A stretch of DNA of 64,000 bases from Candidatus Zhuqueibacterota bacterium (GTDB lineage: Bacteria > Zhuqueibacterota > Zhuqueibacteria > Residuimicrobiales > Krinioviventaceae): NCBI GenBank assembly GCA_016934825.1, contig JAFGSB010000119.1, positions 1 through 64,000 on the forward strand. Direction: 5' to 3'. Positions 53,858 to 60,899 of this stretch are shown here, piece after piece. A program made the position numbers and the translations under genes. The stretch's first letter is position 1, and each line of letters starts with the position of its first letter. A model generated the notes under the pieces. That model searched no databases. It saw only the letters and a list, made by a program, of their open reading frames with translations, and was not told where the DNA came from.

Positions 53858-55363
53858 ATGAAAAAATTAACTTTCCTTTTAGTTGTATCGACTTGTTTTT
53901 ATGGCAATCTTTTTGGGCAAGCGCCCGATACTTCCTGGACAAAAACTTATGGAGGGGAAGAACGTGAGATAGGTCATGCAGTCTGTCAAACCAAAGACGA
54001 TGGGTATATAATAGCGGGGATAACGGAATCTTTTGGAGCGGGTGGAGAAGATATTTTTCTTGTAAGAACTGATACGGATGGCGACACACTCTGGACTAAG
54101 ACTTTTGGCGGGACAGAAAGTGATTGGGGCTATGCTGTACAACAAACTGATGACGATGGATACATAATTGCCGGATTCACCTCTACATTCGGAAACGGCG
54201 ATAATGATGTGTACCTTTTAAAGACTGATGCAAACGGCGATACACTCTGGACTAAAACCTATGGTGGAACTGAGGATGACAGAGCCTTATCGGTTCGACA
54301 AACTTCCGACAACGGATATATTGTTTCAGGAGTTACGAGTTCATTCGGGACTGGCGATTATGATTTATATCTTTTAAAAACTGATGCAAATGGCGACACA
54401 CTCTGGACTAAAACCTATGGCGGCGCAGAAAGAGACGCAGGCTATTCTGTTCAAATAACTTCTGATAATGGCTACATAGTTACCGGATACACTTCATTAA
54501 GCGCTGTTCACAGGGCGGTATTTCTTGTAAAGACGGACTCGGATGGCGATACACTCTGGACAAAAATTTATGGAAAAGAATTTTTAGCAGTGGGAGCTTC
54601 AGTTAAGCAAACATCAGATAACGGATATATTATAGCAGGCACAAAAGTTATTAATAATGCTGTACCTGATTATAATTTTTATCTTATTAAGACTGATGCA
54701 AATGGGGACACTCTTTGGACCAGAGACTATGGAGGAGAATATGTTGAATGGGGGTCTTCATGCCAACAGACCTCGGATGGAGGATATTTGCTTGCAGGAA
54801 CCAGATCAGACTCACCAGAAGGGGTTTACGACAATAGGGAAGTAAATGATATTTTCTTAGTAAAAACTGACTCAAATGGTGATACACTCTGGACAAAAAC
54901 CCTGGGAGGACCGGAGCATGATGCAGTAGGTGAATCAAGTAATACTATGCAACAGACATCCGACAACGGCTACATAATTGTGGGAAGTACAAAATCAGTC
55001 GAATCAGGGGATATTGATGTGTGGTTAATTAAAATTTCGCCGGAAGCTACAATTGTATCAGAGAAAAATTATTTTTATCCTTCTTCATTCGCACTTTATC
55101 AAAATTATCCGAATCCCTTTAACTCTTTTACTAAAATTAGCTATTCGGTCAAAGAATCCGGCCCGGTCAAGTTAAATATCTATGATATATCAGGAAGTAT
55201 TGTTCGTTTACTGGTCAATGAAGAAAAACTTTCGGGTAATCATATTGCTGTTTGGGATGGAAGAAACGAGCAGGGGAAATCGGTTGCAAGTGGGATATAT
55301 TATTATACTCTTACAGTTGGTGAAACCACTCTGAATTCAAAACGTATGATCCTGCTTAAATAA
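53858..55363 (+). CDS. Secreted seven-repeat propeller-like protein with NYPNPFN-type tail
   Basis: A 501-aa exported protein with a signal peptide (LTFLLVVSTCFYGNLFGQ). Seven repeats of about 55 aa follow, each with GDTLWTKTYGG and SVQQTSDNGYIIAG patterns, consistent with a seven-bladed propeller. The repeats stay similar at the DNA level (GGCGACACACTCTGGACTAA-like units), a sign of recent expansion or gene conversion. The C-terminus is LYQNYPNPFNSFTKISYSV plus an FlgD-Ig-like module ending SKRMILLK. It is probably an extracellular surface protein. TTAAGGAG precedes the ATG. It lies between the two copies of the 120-bp repeat. Its ligand is unknown. Confidence 0.83.
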   Translation: MKKLTFLLVVSTCFYGNLFGQAPDTSWTKTYGGEEREIGHAVCQTKDDGYIIAGITESFGAGGEDIFLVRTDTDGDTLWTKTFGGTESDWGYAVQQTDDDGYIIAGFTSTFGNGDNDVYLLKTDANGDTLWTKTYGGTEDDRALSVRQTSDNGYIVSGVTSSFGTGDYDLYLLKTDANGDTLWTKTYGGAERDAGYSVQITSDNGYIVTGYTSLSAVHRAVFLVKTDSDGDTLWTKIYGKEFLAVGASVKQTSDNGYIIAGTKVINNAVPDYNFYLIKTDANGDTLWTRDYGGEYVEWGSSCQQTSDGGYLLAGTRSDSPEGVYDNREVNDIFLVKTDSNGDTLWTKTLGGPEHDAVGESSNTMQQTSDNGYIIVGSTKSVESGDIDVWLIKISPEATIVSEKNYFYPSSFALYQNYPNPFNSFTKISYSVKESGPVKLNIYDISGSIVRLLVNEEKLSGNHIAVWDGRNEQGKSVASGIYYYTLTVGETTLNSKRMILLK

Positions 55364-56088
55364 TTACACCACCTTACTTCCCTCAAGGGCTGAATTGGTT
55401 TGGGAATCCTTTCGTCCCGCAGAGGCTCCGGCCTCCGCGTTTATATAATTTTATCAATATTTTTTCTGTTTATTCCGCCGGAACAGGAGTCCTTGCGGAA
55501 TTAACCGGGAATCAGAGATTCCCGCACATGTTCGTTCCAATCCGGAGAGTGGAACGAGAGGGAGAGCGGGCTACACGTAAAAATTTTAAAATAATCTAAA
55601 ATATTTCTTGTTTTTTCAATAAAATATATTTAATTAAAATTATCAAAACAGAAGCGACACGATGATTCAGGGGCGGGAAGCTTTTCAGTATATTTTATAA
55701 TTATGATAAAATAGACAATTTCAGGGATATAGATTTTGCACCGTTATAAAAATCTTCTTTTTGCGGATTTCACTTGAGACGGATTTTCGATTTTAAAACG
55801 GCGCGAGAAAAAATAGAAACGACTAAATTTATACATGTTTTAAAGGGCGGTAATTGAATCAAAAATATACTGAATTATTAATAAATAGAAATAAATTAGA
55901 TTACAATAAAGAGCAACATTTGCAATTATTATTAGTATACCTAATCTTATGTTATGGTGATTAAATATTTTAATTATTTACTGTTGAAATAAATATTGTC
56001 AACTCATAACTAATAGTAAAAGTTGTTGATTAGCTGAATATTTCTTATTAGCAAAAAAGATGCGCTGATTATATAAAAGGATTTCAAT
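55364..56088. other. Non-coding region upstream of the Qat operon
   Basis: This 725-base region contains a hairpin-rich part (AGGCTCCGGCCT-type and GGGAATCAGAGATTCCC stems around 55415-55530), the right copy of the 120-bp repeat (55578-55699) and a very AT-rich stretch leading to qatA. The Qat promoter must be here, but I cannot place it. The short minus-strand frame at 55999-56247 overlaps the qatA start and is not supported. Confidence 0.6.
55578..55699. repeat. About 120-bp direct repeat, right copy
   Basis: The copy of 52607-52728, with the same order of motifs (TAAAAATTTTAAAATAATCT, GATGATTCAG, AAGCTTTTCA). It separates the CPBP/propeller segment from the Qat operon. Confidence 0.75.
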
Positions 56089-57987
56089 TTGTGGCATGAC
56101 AATGAAACCAGTATTGATCTTTTGGATTACCAGCATTTGGTTGATACGGTAATTGGAATAATAAAGGACGATGGGCTTCTTCCCGCAACAATTGGAGTTT
56201 ATGGAGATTGGGGTAGTGGAAAATCCAGTTTGCTTAGGATGATCCAAGATAGACTGAAAGAAGATGAGGATGTTTATTCGATCAATTTTAATGGCTGGCT
56301 TTTTGAGGGATATGAGGATACCAAATCAGCCTTAATGGGAACCATTCTTGAACAAATTGCAGAGAATGAAAAATTTGATGTGAAAGTAAAGAAAAAAGCG
56401 TTAAGCCTTCTTCAAAAAATTGATTGGATGAAGGTGGCAGGTACCCTATCAAAACATGCTATTGCTCTTGCTGCATTGGGGCCTGCCGGATTAGGAATTA
56501 CAACTGTCTCGGATGCAGTTGCCAAGATTATAGAAGTAGCAAAGGATGGAGCCAATAATGTTGATACGGAAACAATAATCAAAGCTATTGCTAGTAAAGA
56601 GGAGCAAGGGAGGCAATTAAGAAAAGGGATAAGGGAATTTCATACTGAATTCGAGCAACTACTTGAGAACACAAAAATAGAAACACTGGTGGTTTTTATT
56701 GATGATTTGGACAGGTGCAATCCCGAAACTATAATTGAAACACTTGAAGCTATCCGACTCTTTCTTTTTGTTAAAAAAACAGCCTTTGTAATAGGTGCTG
56801 ATGAAAGATTGGTAAAATATGCCGTCAGACGCAGATTTCCCGAAATACCAGGTGAAAGAGTTGAAGTCGGAAGAGATTACCTTGAAAAACTCATTCAATT
56901 TCCAGTAAGGATTCCACAGCTTAGTAGAAGGGAAATAGAAACTTATATAAATCTATTATTTGTCGAATCTTCATTAGATGAAAAACTTTTTAAATCAACT
57001 AGGAAAAAAATATTCAAAAAGAAAAATGTGGACTCATTTGAGCTTCCCTTTAATTATGGTATGGTAAAAGAATTATTATCTGAAGAAGAATTTTCAAAGA
57101 TTGAAGCTGACCTTAATCTTGCGCAGTATCTATCGCCCATATTAACGGTAGGGTTGGGGGGAAATCCACGACAATGCAAAAGATTTCTTAATACGTTAAT
57201 GATGCGTATTGGCATGGCTAATTCAAAGGGAATAAAACTTGAAAAGCGAATTTTAGCCAAGTTGATGCTTCTGGAATATTTCAAGACAGAATGGTTTAAG
57301 AAATTAGCTGAATTACAAGCAGCACAAGATGGAAGACCGAAGGAAATTGAATTTTTAGAAAAACATCTTTCCGCCGATGGTAAAAAGAATGATGGAAAAA
57401 ATGGCGATAAAGACAATCTTAAGTTCTCAAAAGAATTTCAAGAATGGGAGTCCGATCCTTGGATGTGCGACTGGCTGAAATCCGAACCTAAACTGTATAA
57501 AACAAAACTTGCACCATATTTTTATTTCTCAAGGGATACTCTTAGTTCATTTGCCGGTACAGTGCAAAGAATGAGTCCGGTAGCACAGGAGCTAATATTA
57601 AAACTTCTCAGTGATAGCGAAGCCACAAGAAAAGTTGCCATCAAAAATGGTGATAAGCTTAATGAGGCAGAAAAGGCAGCGGTTTTTGAAACACTCTGTG
57701 AAAAGGCAAAAACTATAGAACCAGATTCCAGCGGAAATCAAATACTCGAAACGCTGATTGAATGGGCAAAGGCAAGAAGGAATTTACTTGGTCAGCTTAT
57801 AACATTCTTAAATGGTTTCCCCGAAAAAGGATTGGCTATAAGTCTTGTTGTAAAAATTGAAGGCGCAATAAAAGATAGTCCTTTTAAGGAATCAGGTGAA
57901 AAGTTATTGCAGAAATGGAGCAAAAGCACAACAAATAAGCTTCTTGCCCAAGCTGCTAAAAAGAGATTAGAAGGGAGTAATTATTAA
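56089..57987 (+). CDS. qatA: QatA: KAP-family P-loop ATPase of the Qat defence system
   Basis: A 632-aa KAP NTPase with Walker A GVYGDWGSGKSSLL near residue 45, Walker B TLVVFIDDLDRCNPETI near residue 210 and GNPRQCKRFLNTL in the lid region. The insertion between Walker motifs contains a hydrophobic helix (AIALAALGPAGLGITTV) that may contact membrane, as in other KAP ATPases. The start is TTG with AGGA seven bases upstream. The stop overlaps the ATG of the next gene by one base. Order and partners (QatB, QueC-like, TatD-like) match the QatABCD anti-phage system. The gene is AT-rich compared with the neighbouring CPBP gene. Confidence 0.88.
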   Translation: MWHDNETSIDLLDYQHLVDTVIGIIKDDGLLPATIGVYGDWGSGKSSLLRMIQDRLKEDEDVYSINFNGWLFEGYEDTKSALMGTILEQIAENEKFDVKVKKKALSLLQKIDWMKVAGTLSKHAIALAALGPAGLGITTVSDAVAKIIEVAKDGANNVDTETIIKAIASKEEQGRQLRKGIREFHTEFEQLLENTKIETLVVFIDDLDRCNPETIIETLEAIRLFLFVKKTAFVIGADERLVKYAVRRRFPEIPGERVEVGRDYLEKLIQFPVRIPQLSRREIETYINLLFVESSLDEKLFKSTRKKIFKKKNVDSFELPFNYGMVKELLSEEEFSKIEADLNLAQYLSPILTVGLGGNPRQCKRFLNTLMMRIGMANSKGIKLEKRILAKLMLLEYFKTEWFKKLAELQAAQDGRPKEIEFLEKHLSADGKKNDGKNGDKDNLKFSKEFQEWESDPWMCDWLKSEPKLYKTKLAPYFYFSRDTLSSFAGTVQRMSPVAQELILKLLSDSEATRKVAIKNGDKLNEAEKAAVFETLCEKAKTIEPDSSGNQILETLIEWAKARRNLLGQLITFLNGFPEKGLAISLVVKIEGAIKDSPFKESGEKLLQKWSKSTTNKLLAQAAKKRLEGSNY

Positions 57988-58838
57988 TGGGTACTTCTGG
58001 ATCATACGGTGGTCCTAGTAGTATGCCACCCCTGCTTCCTCCATGGTTACCTGGGCCTGGCCCTCCGATACCGCCAGATCAAGAACCAAAACCAGACGAA
58101 ATTTCTGATAGTGATAACGAAAAGAAGCCAAAACAAGAGAAAAAACCAGACGAATATGTTCAGACATCAACATGGACCTCAGCAAAAACGAGCATGACAA
58201 AGTATGTCAATTCTGGTAACGTAGGATCCCTTAGAGGAATTGGACGCAAATATGTTGGTACTCGTGGTGGAAGCTCAGGTATTGCAAGATCGGCGTTTGC
58301 AGGTAAGAGAACAGCAACAACATTTGGATCGTTTTTAAGAGATGTAGCGACTCAAGGCTTTATTTCAGCATTAGAGAAAAGGGGATTACAGGATTTAATA
58401 GGCGAATCTGCCGATATAATTATCGCTGAAATTGCCGACAAACTTGCTCCTTCTGGTGAAACGAATGAAGAAGCTGTGGCTCGGCAAGCAATGATCGAGG
58501 CAATGGCTTATCTGTATGACGAATATGATTTAGAAGAAGGGGATTTGACAGAGCTTGATTATATAGGGAAGGATGATGTTGAGAAAGTATTTGAATCTTA
58601 TGTGGTATCCTACATATATGGGCGATGGCTTCATGAATTAGGAAAAAGAATAGAAGACAATGCGATTTCGGAAAGCATGGCCATAAAATTAGAAAAACAA
58701 ACCAAAGATTATGTTAAAGGAGCTGTTGAAATTGATTTCGGAATTAATGATTTGCTGGCAATAGATTGGAACAAATCTGCTGGAATTGTTGACAATATCT
58801 TTACTCAGGCTTACTCATTCTTAGAGGTGAAGGAATGA
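57987..58838 (+). CDS. qatB: QatB: Qat system protein
   Basis: A 283-aa protein with the N-terminal signature MGTSGSYGGP common to QatB proteins, a proline-rich low-complexity stretch (PPLLPPWLPGPGPPIPP) and a charged linker. A mostly helical domain follows (FGSFLRDVATQGF; ANxxIIAEIADKLAP-like; acidic YDEYDLEEGDLTELDY). The conserved Gly2 could be a modification site: QueC-like enzymes in type IV CBASS have been reported to attach a deazaguanine to the N-terminal glycine of a partner protein, and QatC could do the same here (inference). It overlaps qatA by one base and qatC by four. Confidence 0.82.
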   Translation: MGTSGSYGGPSSMPPLLPPWLPGPGPPIPPDQEPKPDEISDSDNEKKPKQEKKPDEYVQTSTWTSAKTSMTKYVNSGNVGSLRGIGRKYVGTRGGSSGIARSAFAGKRTATTFGSFLRDVATQGFISALEKRGLQDLIGESADIIIAEIADKLAPSGETNEEAVARQAMIEAMAYLYDEYDLEEGDLTELDYIGKDDVEKVFESYVVSYIYGRWLHELGKRIEDNAISESMAIKLEKQTKDYVKGAVEIDFGINDLLAIDWNKSAGIVDNIFTQAYSFLEVKE

Positions 58839-60166
58839 AATATCATATAATCTGCCGTGTAGGCAAAAAAGATAAATATTCAATTAAGGGTATAAATAAG
58901 GATAATTCAACTGTCCTACCCTTTTTGGGCAATCAAATGGTAGATAGATCTATTAGGTATAATACATTTAATCTGCTCTCATCAACTAACCTAATCCCTA
59001 ATGGAAATACAATAGACCTTCTGATAACATCAATTGCAGCATTTTCAGCAGATAAAATTGTTTCAAGATCAAAGGGATTCGAGGATTGGAGCAGGTATTT
59101 TGTCGTCCATTTGCCAGTGGTTGATATAAAAGTATGGGAAAAAGCTAAAGATAAATTGCAAAAAATGCTCTCCTTCTTGAGTGGCGATCATTGGGAATTT
59201 GAACTAAGGGAAAGAAAGGAAATAAAAATTAAGGGCAAAAAGAAAAAGCAACCTGTAGACATAAATAAGGTGTGTCTCTTTTCTGGGGGGCTTGATTCCT
59301 ATATCGGCATAGTTGACCTTTTAGAAAAATACAGCAAGGATAAAATTGCGTTAGTAAGCAAGCATGGGCAAGGACAAGATGAAAGCAAACCACAAGACAG
59401 GATAATTAAAATAATAAATAATAAATATTCACAAGAAAGGTTTTTGAATTTCAAATTTTTTATATCAGCCTATAATAGTGTTGAACCGACTACCCGTTCA
59501 AGATCTATTCTATTTTTGGCACACGGTATTGCTGTTGCCCATGCATTAGGGAAAGATGTACCGCTTTATGTTCCTGAGAATGGGCTAATTTCTTTGAATA
59601 TTCCTTTAAATCCTTCACGTATGGGAAGTTCAAGCACGAGGACAACTCACCCCTATTTCATATCCTTATTCCGAGAAGTTATAAAAATTCTTGGTATGGA
59701 GAATCCCATTTTGAATCCATATCAATTTATTACTAAGGGTGAAATGATTATTGATTCTATGGCTCCTGAATTTATAAAGCAAAGTGCTAAAGAAACCATG
59801 TCATGTTCTCATCCAAGCGTAGGAAGATATAAGTATCGAGTTTGTGACAAACATTGTGGATATTGTGTCCCATGTATAATTCGTCGTGCAGCAATGAATA
59901 AAGCAAAAATTGATACACCCAAGGAGTACAATGTAAACATCTTGAAAAATGCTCTAAGCCCTAAGACAAAAGCGGGTCAGGATCTCCGTGCATTCCAAAT
60001 GGCTATAGAAAGATGGAAACAAAATAAAATATCTCCATTGCTTCAAGTATTGGCATCTGGCCCATTACCTTGTTCTGTTAAAGATAAAAAACAATATGCC
60101 GAAGTTTACATAAGAGGGATGAATGAGGTTGCTACTTTTCTAAGGGAAATTAATGGAAAAGTCTGA
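58835..60166 (+). CDS. qatC: QatC: QueC-like PP-loop enzyme of the Qat system
   Basis: A 443-aa protein with a PP-loop ATP-pyrophosphatase core, VCLFSGGLDSYIGIVDLL near residue 147, after a 140-residue N-terminal extension absent from QueC. It has a zinc-binding cysteine group in the C-terminal part (CSHPSVGRYKYRVC, then CGYCVPC) as in QueC, the enzyme that makes preQ0. The KHGQGQDESKP and FLAHGIAVAHALG segments are family features. Its ATG overlaps the qatB stop (ATGA), and qatD starts 14 bases before its end. It probably activates a deazaguanine-like or carboxyl substrate for defence signalling or modification. Confidence 0.88.
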   Translation: MKYHIICRVGKKDKYSIKGINKDNSTVLPFLGNQMVDRSIRYNTFNLLSSTNLIPNGNTIDLLITSIAAFSADKIVSRSKGFEDWSRYFVVHLPVVDIKVWEKAKDKLQKMLSFLSGDHWEFELRERKEIKIKGKKKKQPVDINKVCLFSGGLDSYIGIVDLLEKYSKDKIALVSKHGQGQDESKPQDRIIKIINNKYSQERFLNFKFFISAYNSVEPTTRSRSILFLAHGIAVAHALGKDVPLYVPENGLISLNIPLNPSRMGSSSTRTTHPYFISLFREVIKILGMENPILNPYQFITKGEMIIDSMAPEFIKQSAKETMSCSHPSVGRYKYRVCDKHCGYCVPCIIRRAAMNKAKIDTPKEYNVNILKNALSPKTKAGQDLRAFQMAIERWKQNKISPLLQVLASGPLPCSVKDKKQYAEVYIRGMNEVATFLREINGKV

Positions 60167-60899
60167 AAATATCTTTTTTGTCGATACACACTTTCATTTG
60201 GATCTTGCCAAGAATCCTGAAAAGTTAATACATGAAATAGAAAAAAATCAAATTTACACAATTGCTGTAACAAATGCTCCAGCGGCGTTCCCATTTACTT
60301 TTAGTTTTTGCACAAATATGAAATATATCCAACCTAGTATAGGTCTTCATCCCCAATTGGCAAGAGAAAGACAACAAGAGTTATCCCAATTTGATGAAGC
60401 TTTGAAGAAAACCAAATATGTTGGTGAAATCGGTTTGGATTATTCTGGAAATGATAAATTATCGGAAGAAATTCAAAGAAATGTCTTTAAGAAAATTCTC
60501 GAAAAATGTGCTTATCACAAAGATAAGATTCTCAGCATACATTCTCGTAGAAGTGCTGAAGACATTATATCATTTATTGGCAATAATTATCCAGGCAAGA
60601 TAATATTGCATTGGTATAGTGGGAATCTCAAATTGCTTGAGAAAGCTATAAAATATGGTTTTTACTTTTCCGTGAATTATGCCATGTCTATTTCAAAAAA
60701 TGGAAAAAGTATTATTCAGGCTATACCGTTGGACCGTCTTCTTACCGAGTCAGATGGTCCATTTATTAAAATCAAAGGGAAGCCTTGTGAACCTATGAAT
60801 ATTTCTTATTTAATAGTGAAAATTGCTAAAATTCTTAATAAAAATCCTTTAGAATTTAAGAATACAGTTTTTTCAAACTTTAAAAAAGTTATTACTTAG
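60153..60899 (+). CDS. qatD: QatD: TatD-like metal hydrolase of the Qat system
   Basis: A 248-aa TatD-family hydrolase. The metal motifs are FVDTHFHLDL (HxH), GEIGLDYSG (bridging Glu), ILSIHSRRS (His), ILHWYSG (His) and TESDGPF (late Asp). TatD proteins are metal-dependent nucleases or phosphoesterases. In the Qat system the gene is the fourth component needed for defence. It overlaps qatC by 14 bases, so the four genes form one tight operon. The following 199 bases up to purC contain nothing recognised. Confidence 0.87.
   Translation: MEKSENIFFVDTHFHLDLAKNPEKLIHEIEKNQIYTIAVTNAPAAFPFTFSFCTNMKYIQPSIGLHPQLARERQQELSQFDEALKKTKYVGEIGLDYSGNDKLSEEIQRNVFKKILEKCAYHKDKILSIHSRRSAEDIISFIGNNYPGKIILHWYSGNLKLLEKAIKYGFYFSVNYAMSISKNGKSIIQAIPLDRLLTESDGPFIKIKGKPCEPMNISYLIVKIAKILNKNPLEFKNTVFSNFKKVIT

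What the first reader, a model, noticed from the sequence alone, without database searches (positions are those of the whole stretch)
56089..60899. Complete QatABCD anti-phage operon
Seen: a KAP ATPase, a protein starting MGTSGSYGGP, a QueC-like PP-loop enzyme with an N-terminal extension and a TatD-like hydrolase, in that order with overlaps of 1, 4 and 14 bases. Known: this set is the described Qat defence system. New aspects are its occurrence in this lineage, a TTG start for QatA, the proline-rich linker in QatB and its island position next to repeats.
Basis: partly seen in the sequence, partly recalled or inferred. Interest (0 to 1): 0.6.

Follow-up and report, generated by a model that had tools for sequence, protein, structure and literature searches.

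The report
Ordinary, intact QatABCD anti-phage operon
This is a complete, apparently working copy of a known four-gene bacterial defence system against viruses; it is ordinary in make-up, but it and its relatives in other bacteria suggest that the system's key enzyme does not use the deazaguanine compound used by its best-studied relative.

Summary
The finding is correct. Four overlapping genes at 56089-60899 (+) encode QatA, QatB, QatC and QatD, with overlaps of 1, 4 and 14 bases as stated. PADLOC Qat profiles match all four almost end to end (E 4e-42 to 2e-151). NCBIfam curated cut-offs are passed by QatB, QatC and QatD; QatA scores 578 against a cut-off of 600. Residues known to matter are intact: QatB MGTS N-terminus, QatC SGGLDS, STRTTHP and four zinc cysteines, QatA Walker A/B, QatD metal ligands. 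The TTG start of QatA aligns with annotated QatA starts elsewhere. The system is widespread (at least 577 loci); the nearest QatC is 42% identical, so this is a divergent new member of a known kind. 'Defence island' is not supported: it is a low-GC insert beside conserved purC, absent from the other relatives searched. Extra result: this genome has no QueC and no detectable QueE, and 12 of 32 other QatC-bearing genomes lack QueC, the whole QueD family and any clear QueE. 7-carboxy-7-deazaguanine is therefore unlikely to be QatC's universal co-substrate, in line with its altered base-recognition residues. This inference needs a bench test.

The parts
56075..56081 (+). Shine-Dalgarno-like AAAAGGA, 7 bases before the TTG start of qatA
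   Evidence: sequence
56089..57987 (+). qatA: KAP-family P-loop ATPase, TTG start; Walker A GDWGSGKS, Walker B LVVFIDDLDRC
   Evidence: PADLOC QatA 1.5e-151; NCBIfam QatA 578.3 bits against cut-off 600; Pfam KAP_NTPase 7.3e-48; start aligns with annotated QatA starts
57987..58838 (+). qatB: MGTS N-terminus, proline-rich tail of about 60 residues, helical domain; putative substrate of QatC
   Evidence: PADLOC QatB 4.4e-42; NCBIfam QatB 129.7 bits against cut-off 100; phmmer to QatB structures 9vll and 9zee
58835..60166 (+). qatC: QueC-like PP-loop ATPase with N- and C-terminal extensions; SGGLDS, STRTTHP, zinc cysteines 324, 341, 344 and 347
   Evidence: PADLOC QatC 1.1e-124; NCBIfam QatC 451 bits against cut-off 280; phmmer to QatC structures 9vlk (5.6e-69) and 9zee (8.8e-64)
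60153..60899 (+). qatD: TatD-family metal-dependent nuclease; H13, H15, E92, H130, H153 and D201 present
   Evidence: PADLOC QatD 2.9e-77; NCBIfam QatD 275.5 bits against cut-off 230; Pfam TatD_DNase 2.3e-49
55580..55720 (.). copy of a dispersed AT-rich intergenic repeat, upstream of the operon; not regarded as part of it

Best explanation
The operon is a complete, apparently functional QatABCD anti-phage system acquired horizontally. Overlapping stop and start codons couple translation of the four proteins. By homology, QatB and QatC form a 1:1 complex that is the core of defence. [quoted passage not shown] QatC activates a carboxylate-type small molecule with ATP and conjugates it to that glycine. 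QatA (DNA-binding KAP ATPase) and QatD (TatD nuclease) widen the range of phages that are blocked. Shown here: the sequence features, membership and operon structure. Known from published work on other members: the complex, and the need for QatB G2, the QatC PP-loop and the two threonines. Inferred: the conjugation chemistry and the activity of this copy. The small molecule is probably not 7-carboxy-7-deazaguanine (CDG), because the host and many other QatC hosts appear unable to make it.
For: Profiles and cut-offs; structure-sequence matches; residues tested as essential in PMC13279940 are present: PP-loop serines, both threonines of STRTTHP, QatB MGTS, and the conserved Pro and Trp of the tail as P18 and W20, as are the zinc cysteines. 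QatA Walker motifs and QatD ligands are invariant in the alignments. All four genes, qatA to qatC in the same order, occur in nearly all of 80 loci from many phyla. Host and CDG pathway.
Against: QatA falls 22 bits short of the NCBIfam curated cut-off. No activity was measured. Published attempts to reconstitute QatC catalysis failed (PMC13279940), so the conjugation step is unproven.
Confidence: 0.93

Rival explanations
1. The system is Qat, and QatC attaches CDG itself to QatB exactly as Cap9 does in type IV CBASS (the reading preferred in PMC13329287).
For: Same fold, same N-terminal glycine logic and ATP site.
Against: The CDG-recognising Tyr/Asp are replaced by invariant threonines (here STRTTHP). 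Twelve of 32 other QatC-bearing genomes lack canonical QueC and the whole QueD family (PF01242) and show no clear QueE; this host lacks QueC and detectable QueE. Lysinibacillus fusiformis (queC present) and L. cavernae (queC and queD absent) carry nearly identical QatC.
Confidence: 0.3
2. The operon is a decayed or silent remnant.
For: Host expression unknown; QatA just under one cut-off; no strong promoter signal.
Against: Four full-length overlapping frames, all functional residues kept, conserved start positions.
Confidence: 0.05
3. QatC here is a housekeeping QueC that makes preQ0 for tRNA.
For: Pfam QueC match 3.2e-6; the host lacks another QueC.
Against: NCBIfam QueC 15.6 bits against cut-off 150.3 while QatC scores 451 against 280; YPDC motif replaced; E. 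coli QatC did not restore queuosine in a queC mutant (PMC13329287); qatABD context.
Confidence: 0.02

Closest known systems
QatABCD anti-phage system (Gao et al. 2020; solved QatBC members 9zee/9zef and 9vlk/9vll)
   Same: All four proteins, gene order, 1- and 4-base overlaps, MGTS, SGGLDS, STRTTHP, zinc site, TatD and KAP motifs
   Different: Sequence divergence (nearest QatC found is 42% identical); TTG start for qatA; 14-base qatC/qatD overlap
Type IV CBASS Cap9 with its CD-NTase
   Same: QueC-fold enzyme with a partner whose N-terminus is M-G; Cap9 conjugates CDG to that glycine
   Different: No CD-NTase or Cap10; QatC has extensions and Thr/Thr in place of the Tyr/Asp that bind the base
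[quoted passage not shown]
   Same: PP-loop ATPase core and zinc site
   Different: Lacks the YPDC signature; scores a tenth of the QueC cut-off

Membership tests
QatABCD defence system | Four adjacent genes qatA-qatB-qatC-qatD in one operon | tested here: met
QatABCD defence system | QatA: KAP P-loop ATPase matching the QatA family | tested here: met
   PADLOC 1.5e-151 over nearly full length; Pfam KAP 7.3e-48; Walker A/B present. The NCBIfam equivalog cut-off is missed (578.3 against 600)
QatABCD defence system | QatB with N-terminal MGTS and a C-terminal domain matching the QatB family | tested here: met
QatABCD defence system | QatC: SGGxDS, Thr/Thr, zinc cysteines, N- and C-terminal extensions | tested here: met
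QatABCD defence system | QatD: TatD nuclease with metal ligands | tested here: met
QatABCD defence system | Protection against phage | not testable with these tools
   needs plaque assays
Canonical QueC | Score over TIGR00364 cut-off; YPDC base-recognition motif | tested here: not met
   15.6 bits against 150.3; STRTTHP at that place
Type IV CBASS | CD-NTase as partner of the QueC-like protein | tested here: not met
   The partner matches QatB, and no CBASS profile matches any of the four proteins

The most novel reading that the evidence does not exclude
QatC conjugates something other than CDG to QatB. Intact Qat operons occur in bacteria with no QueC, no QueD-family protein and no clear QueE, and QatC replaces the base-binding Tyr/Asp by invariant threonines. 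If so, Qat is a second, chemically different N-terminal protein modification used in anti-phage immunity, and hosts without a queuosine pathway would be the right place to look for the adduct.
Probability: 0.5. Interest if true: 0.6.

Novelty: new member of a known kind. Interest (0 to 1): 0.28.

Why it matters
The operon adds a divergent, apparently intact Qat member to a lineage where no other of the nearest genomes searched has one. Its wider use is that the open question for Qat is which molecule QatC attaches to QatB. The co-occurrence data give a concrete prediction: defence should not depend on queD or queE.

Tried and rejected
A single-sequence scan of genome contigs with the window QatC found nothing because its peptide patterns were too specific; an alignment of eight QatCs then found 577. 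The idea of a large defence island was rejected: neighbours with domain matches are not defence genes, no tRNA lies in the window, and no integrase was noticed in the ORF lists. The idea that the flanking repeat mobilises the operon was rejected: it is dispersed over the genome and lies on one side only, with no matching copy found beyond qatD. Weak QatC hits in relatives (L003, L004) are not Qat operons: no qatA, qatB or qatD was seen beside them. The second QatBC structure paper (PMC13376578) is not held.

Full report
Observation. ORF listing confirms four overlapping genes on the + strand: 56089-57987, 57987-58838, 58835-60166 and 60153-60899. Overlaps are 1, 4 and 14 bases. A Shine-Dalgarno-like AAAAGGA (56075-56081) precedes the TTG start of the first gene. 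The stretch occurs once in the host genome, which has 5.39 Mb in 179 contigs at 95% completeness.

Identity. PADLOC profiles give QatA 1.5e-151, QatB 4.4e-42, QatC 1.1e-124 and QatD 2.9e-77, each covering nearly the whole protein. NCBIfam equivalog cut-offs are passed by QatB (129.7 against 100), QatC (451 against 280) and QatD (275.5 against 230). QatA scores 578.3 against 600, just short. Pfam gives KAP_NTPase, QueC and TatD_DNase; QatB has no Pfam family. By sequence, QatC and QatB match the solved QatC and QatB chains 9vlk/9vll and 9zee/9zef. QatA has no solved relative detectable by phmmer.

Integrity. Alignments with seven Qat operons from plasmids show QatC SGGLDS, STRT and HP, and the zinc cysteines (window C324, C341, C344, C347) invariant; QatB MGTS in all eight; QatA Walker A (G-W-G-GKS) and Walker B (D-LDRC); and QatD H13, H15, E92, H130, H153 and D201. 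PMC13279940 reports that the PP-loop serines, the two threonines, QatB G2 and QatB residues 16-22 are needed for defence in P. aeruginosa Qat. All have counterparts here, including the conserved Pro and Trp of the tail (P18, W20). The TTG start of qatA falls where annotated QatA proteins start, for example MWRDSETEVDYL in Enterococcus lactis against MWHDNETSIDLL here.

Distribution and setting. The best match to the window protein is 42% identical. In nearly all of the 80 loci kept, all four genes are present and qatA, qatB and qatC keep the same order; most exceptions are loci cut short by a contig end. In a tree of 43 QatCs the window protein is a lone branch without a supported nearest relative. 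Among the 60 genomes searched (the host and its nearest relatives), only the host has QatC over the cut-off. In the same-genus genome G001, purC, the DUF2809 gene and the MATE gene are in the same order, but a different gene stands upstream of purC and there is no Qat. The operon has about 31-41% GC, against 47-52% on the purC side. Horizontal gain beside purC is the natural inference. The intergenic repeat upstream (55580-55720) is a dispersed genomic repeat. The neighbours with domain matches are not defence genes, so 'island' overstates the setting.

Mechanism. The published model is that QatB and QatC are the minimal defence unit and that QatC modifies the QatB N-terminal glycine, with the co-substrate unknown. 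CDG was not seen in the crystal, and the base-binding Tyr/Asp of QueC and Cap9 are Thr/Thr in QatC. PMC13329287 nevertheless describes carboxydeazaguanylation as the proposed reaction. I asked whether QatC hosts can make CDG. In 33 QatC-bearing genomes (the host and 32 others, mostly named isolates), 9 have canonical QueC over the cut-off and 20 have any PTPS/QueD-family protein. Twelve of the 32 lack both: Faecalitalea, Sporofaciens, Lysinibacillus cavernae, two Peptoniphilus, Mediannikoviicoccus, a Streptococcus, Petrocella, Streptohalobacillus, Lachnoanaerobaculum, a Streptomyces and Pseudochrobactrum. In these twelve, three QueE models give nothing above 39 bits, and those weak hits cover mainly the radical-SAM core. 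The first of these models scores 43-376 bits in most queC-positive genomes but misses two of them, so QueE absence alone is weaker than QueD absence. The window's own genome has a QueD-type protein (96.8 against cut-off 89.25) but no QueC and no QueE hit above 28 bits. Its best QueE hit is an ORF that, read by eye, looks like an anaerobic reductase activator. The twelve genomes carry full-length QatC with STRTTHP and SGGxDS, and hits to the other three Qat proteins (in L068, Sporofaciens, QatA gives only a partial frame). They are spread over the QatC tree: supported branches force at least 4 changes. L. fusiformis (with queC) and L. cavernae (without queC and queD) have nearly identical QatC. 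This argues that de novo CDG is not a general requirement for Qat. Caveats: presence is not activity; uptake of CDG or an unknown QueD replacement is possible; completeness was not given for the 32 genomes; no Cap9 control was run.

Verdict. The listed 'new aspects' are minor: a TTG start, a proline-rich tail typical of QatB, and a plain insertion site. The useful addition is the co-occurrence result on the QatC co-substrate.

Noticed in passing
L142:6922-9568 (G008, same family as the host): A QatC-like protein (PADLOC QatC 3.7e-45) with an extra C-terminal region of about 200 residues, overlapped by an upstream 299-aa gene that begins MGHERMG. No qatA, qatB or qatD; a ParB-like gene and a serine recombinase lie nearby. 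The base-site motif reads ASRTAHP instead of STRTTHP. Possibly a different QueC-like defence pair.
   Followed up: partly
L141:4784-7462 (G050, same class): A QatC-like protein (PADLOC QatC 7.1e-49) with SGGLDA and NTRASSP in place of the Qat motifs, followed by an XRE/ImmA-IrrE-type protein (RmrA-like in PADLOC) and a small gene that looks like a PIN-domain protein. Not a Qat operon.
   Followed up: partly
L039, L042, L044 (cyanobacteria): qatA-qatB-qatC are in order but the QatD match lies on the opposite strand nearby, unlike in the other loci.
   Followed up: no
L110-L119 (viral contigs): Qat operons occur on predicted viral contigs from IMG/VR, most with all four genes and some with the STRTAHP variant; two Listeria phage records also hold a QatC-like stretch. 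Phages or prophages may carry Qat.
   Followed up: no
window 55490-55580: Two hairpins in tandem ahead of the dispersed repeat; fold only mildly better than shuffles (z -1.7). About a dozen copies of this part are found elsewhere in the genome.
   Followed up: partly
window 53858-55363: Secreted protein with six or more repeats of about 52 residues (GDTLWTKTYGG) and a FlgD/Por-type sorting tail; accounts for most of the direct repeats seen near the operon.
   Followed up: partly
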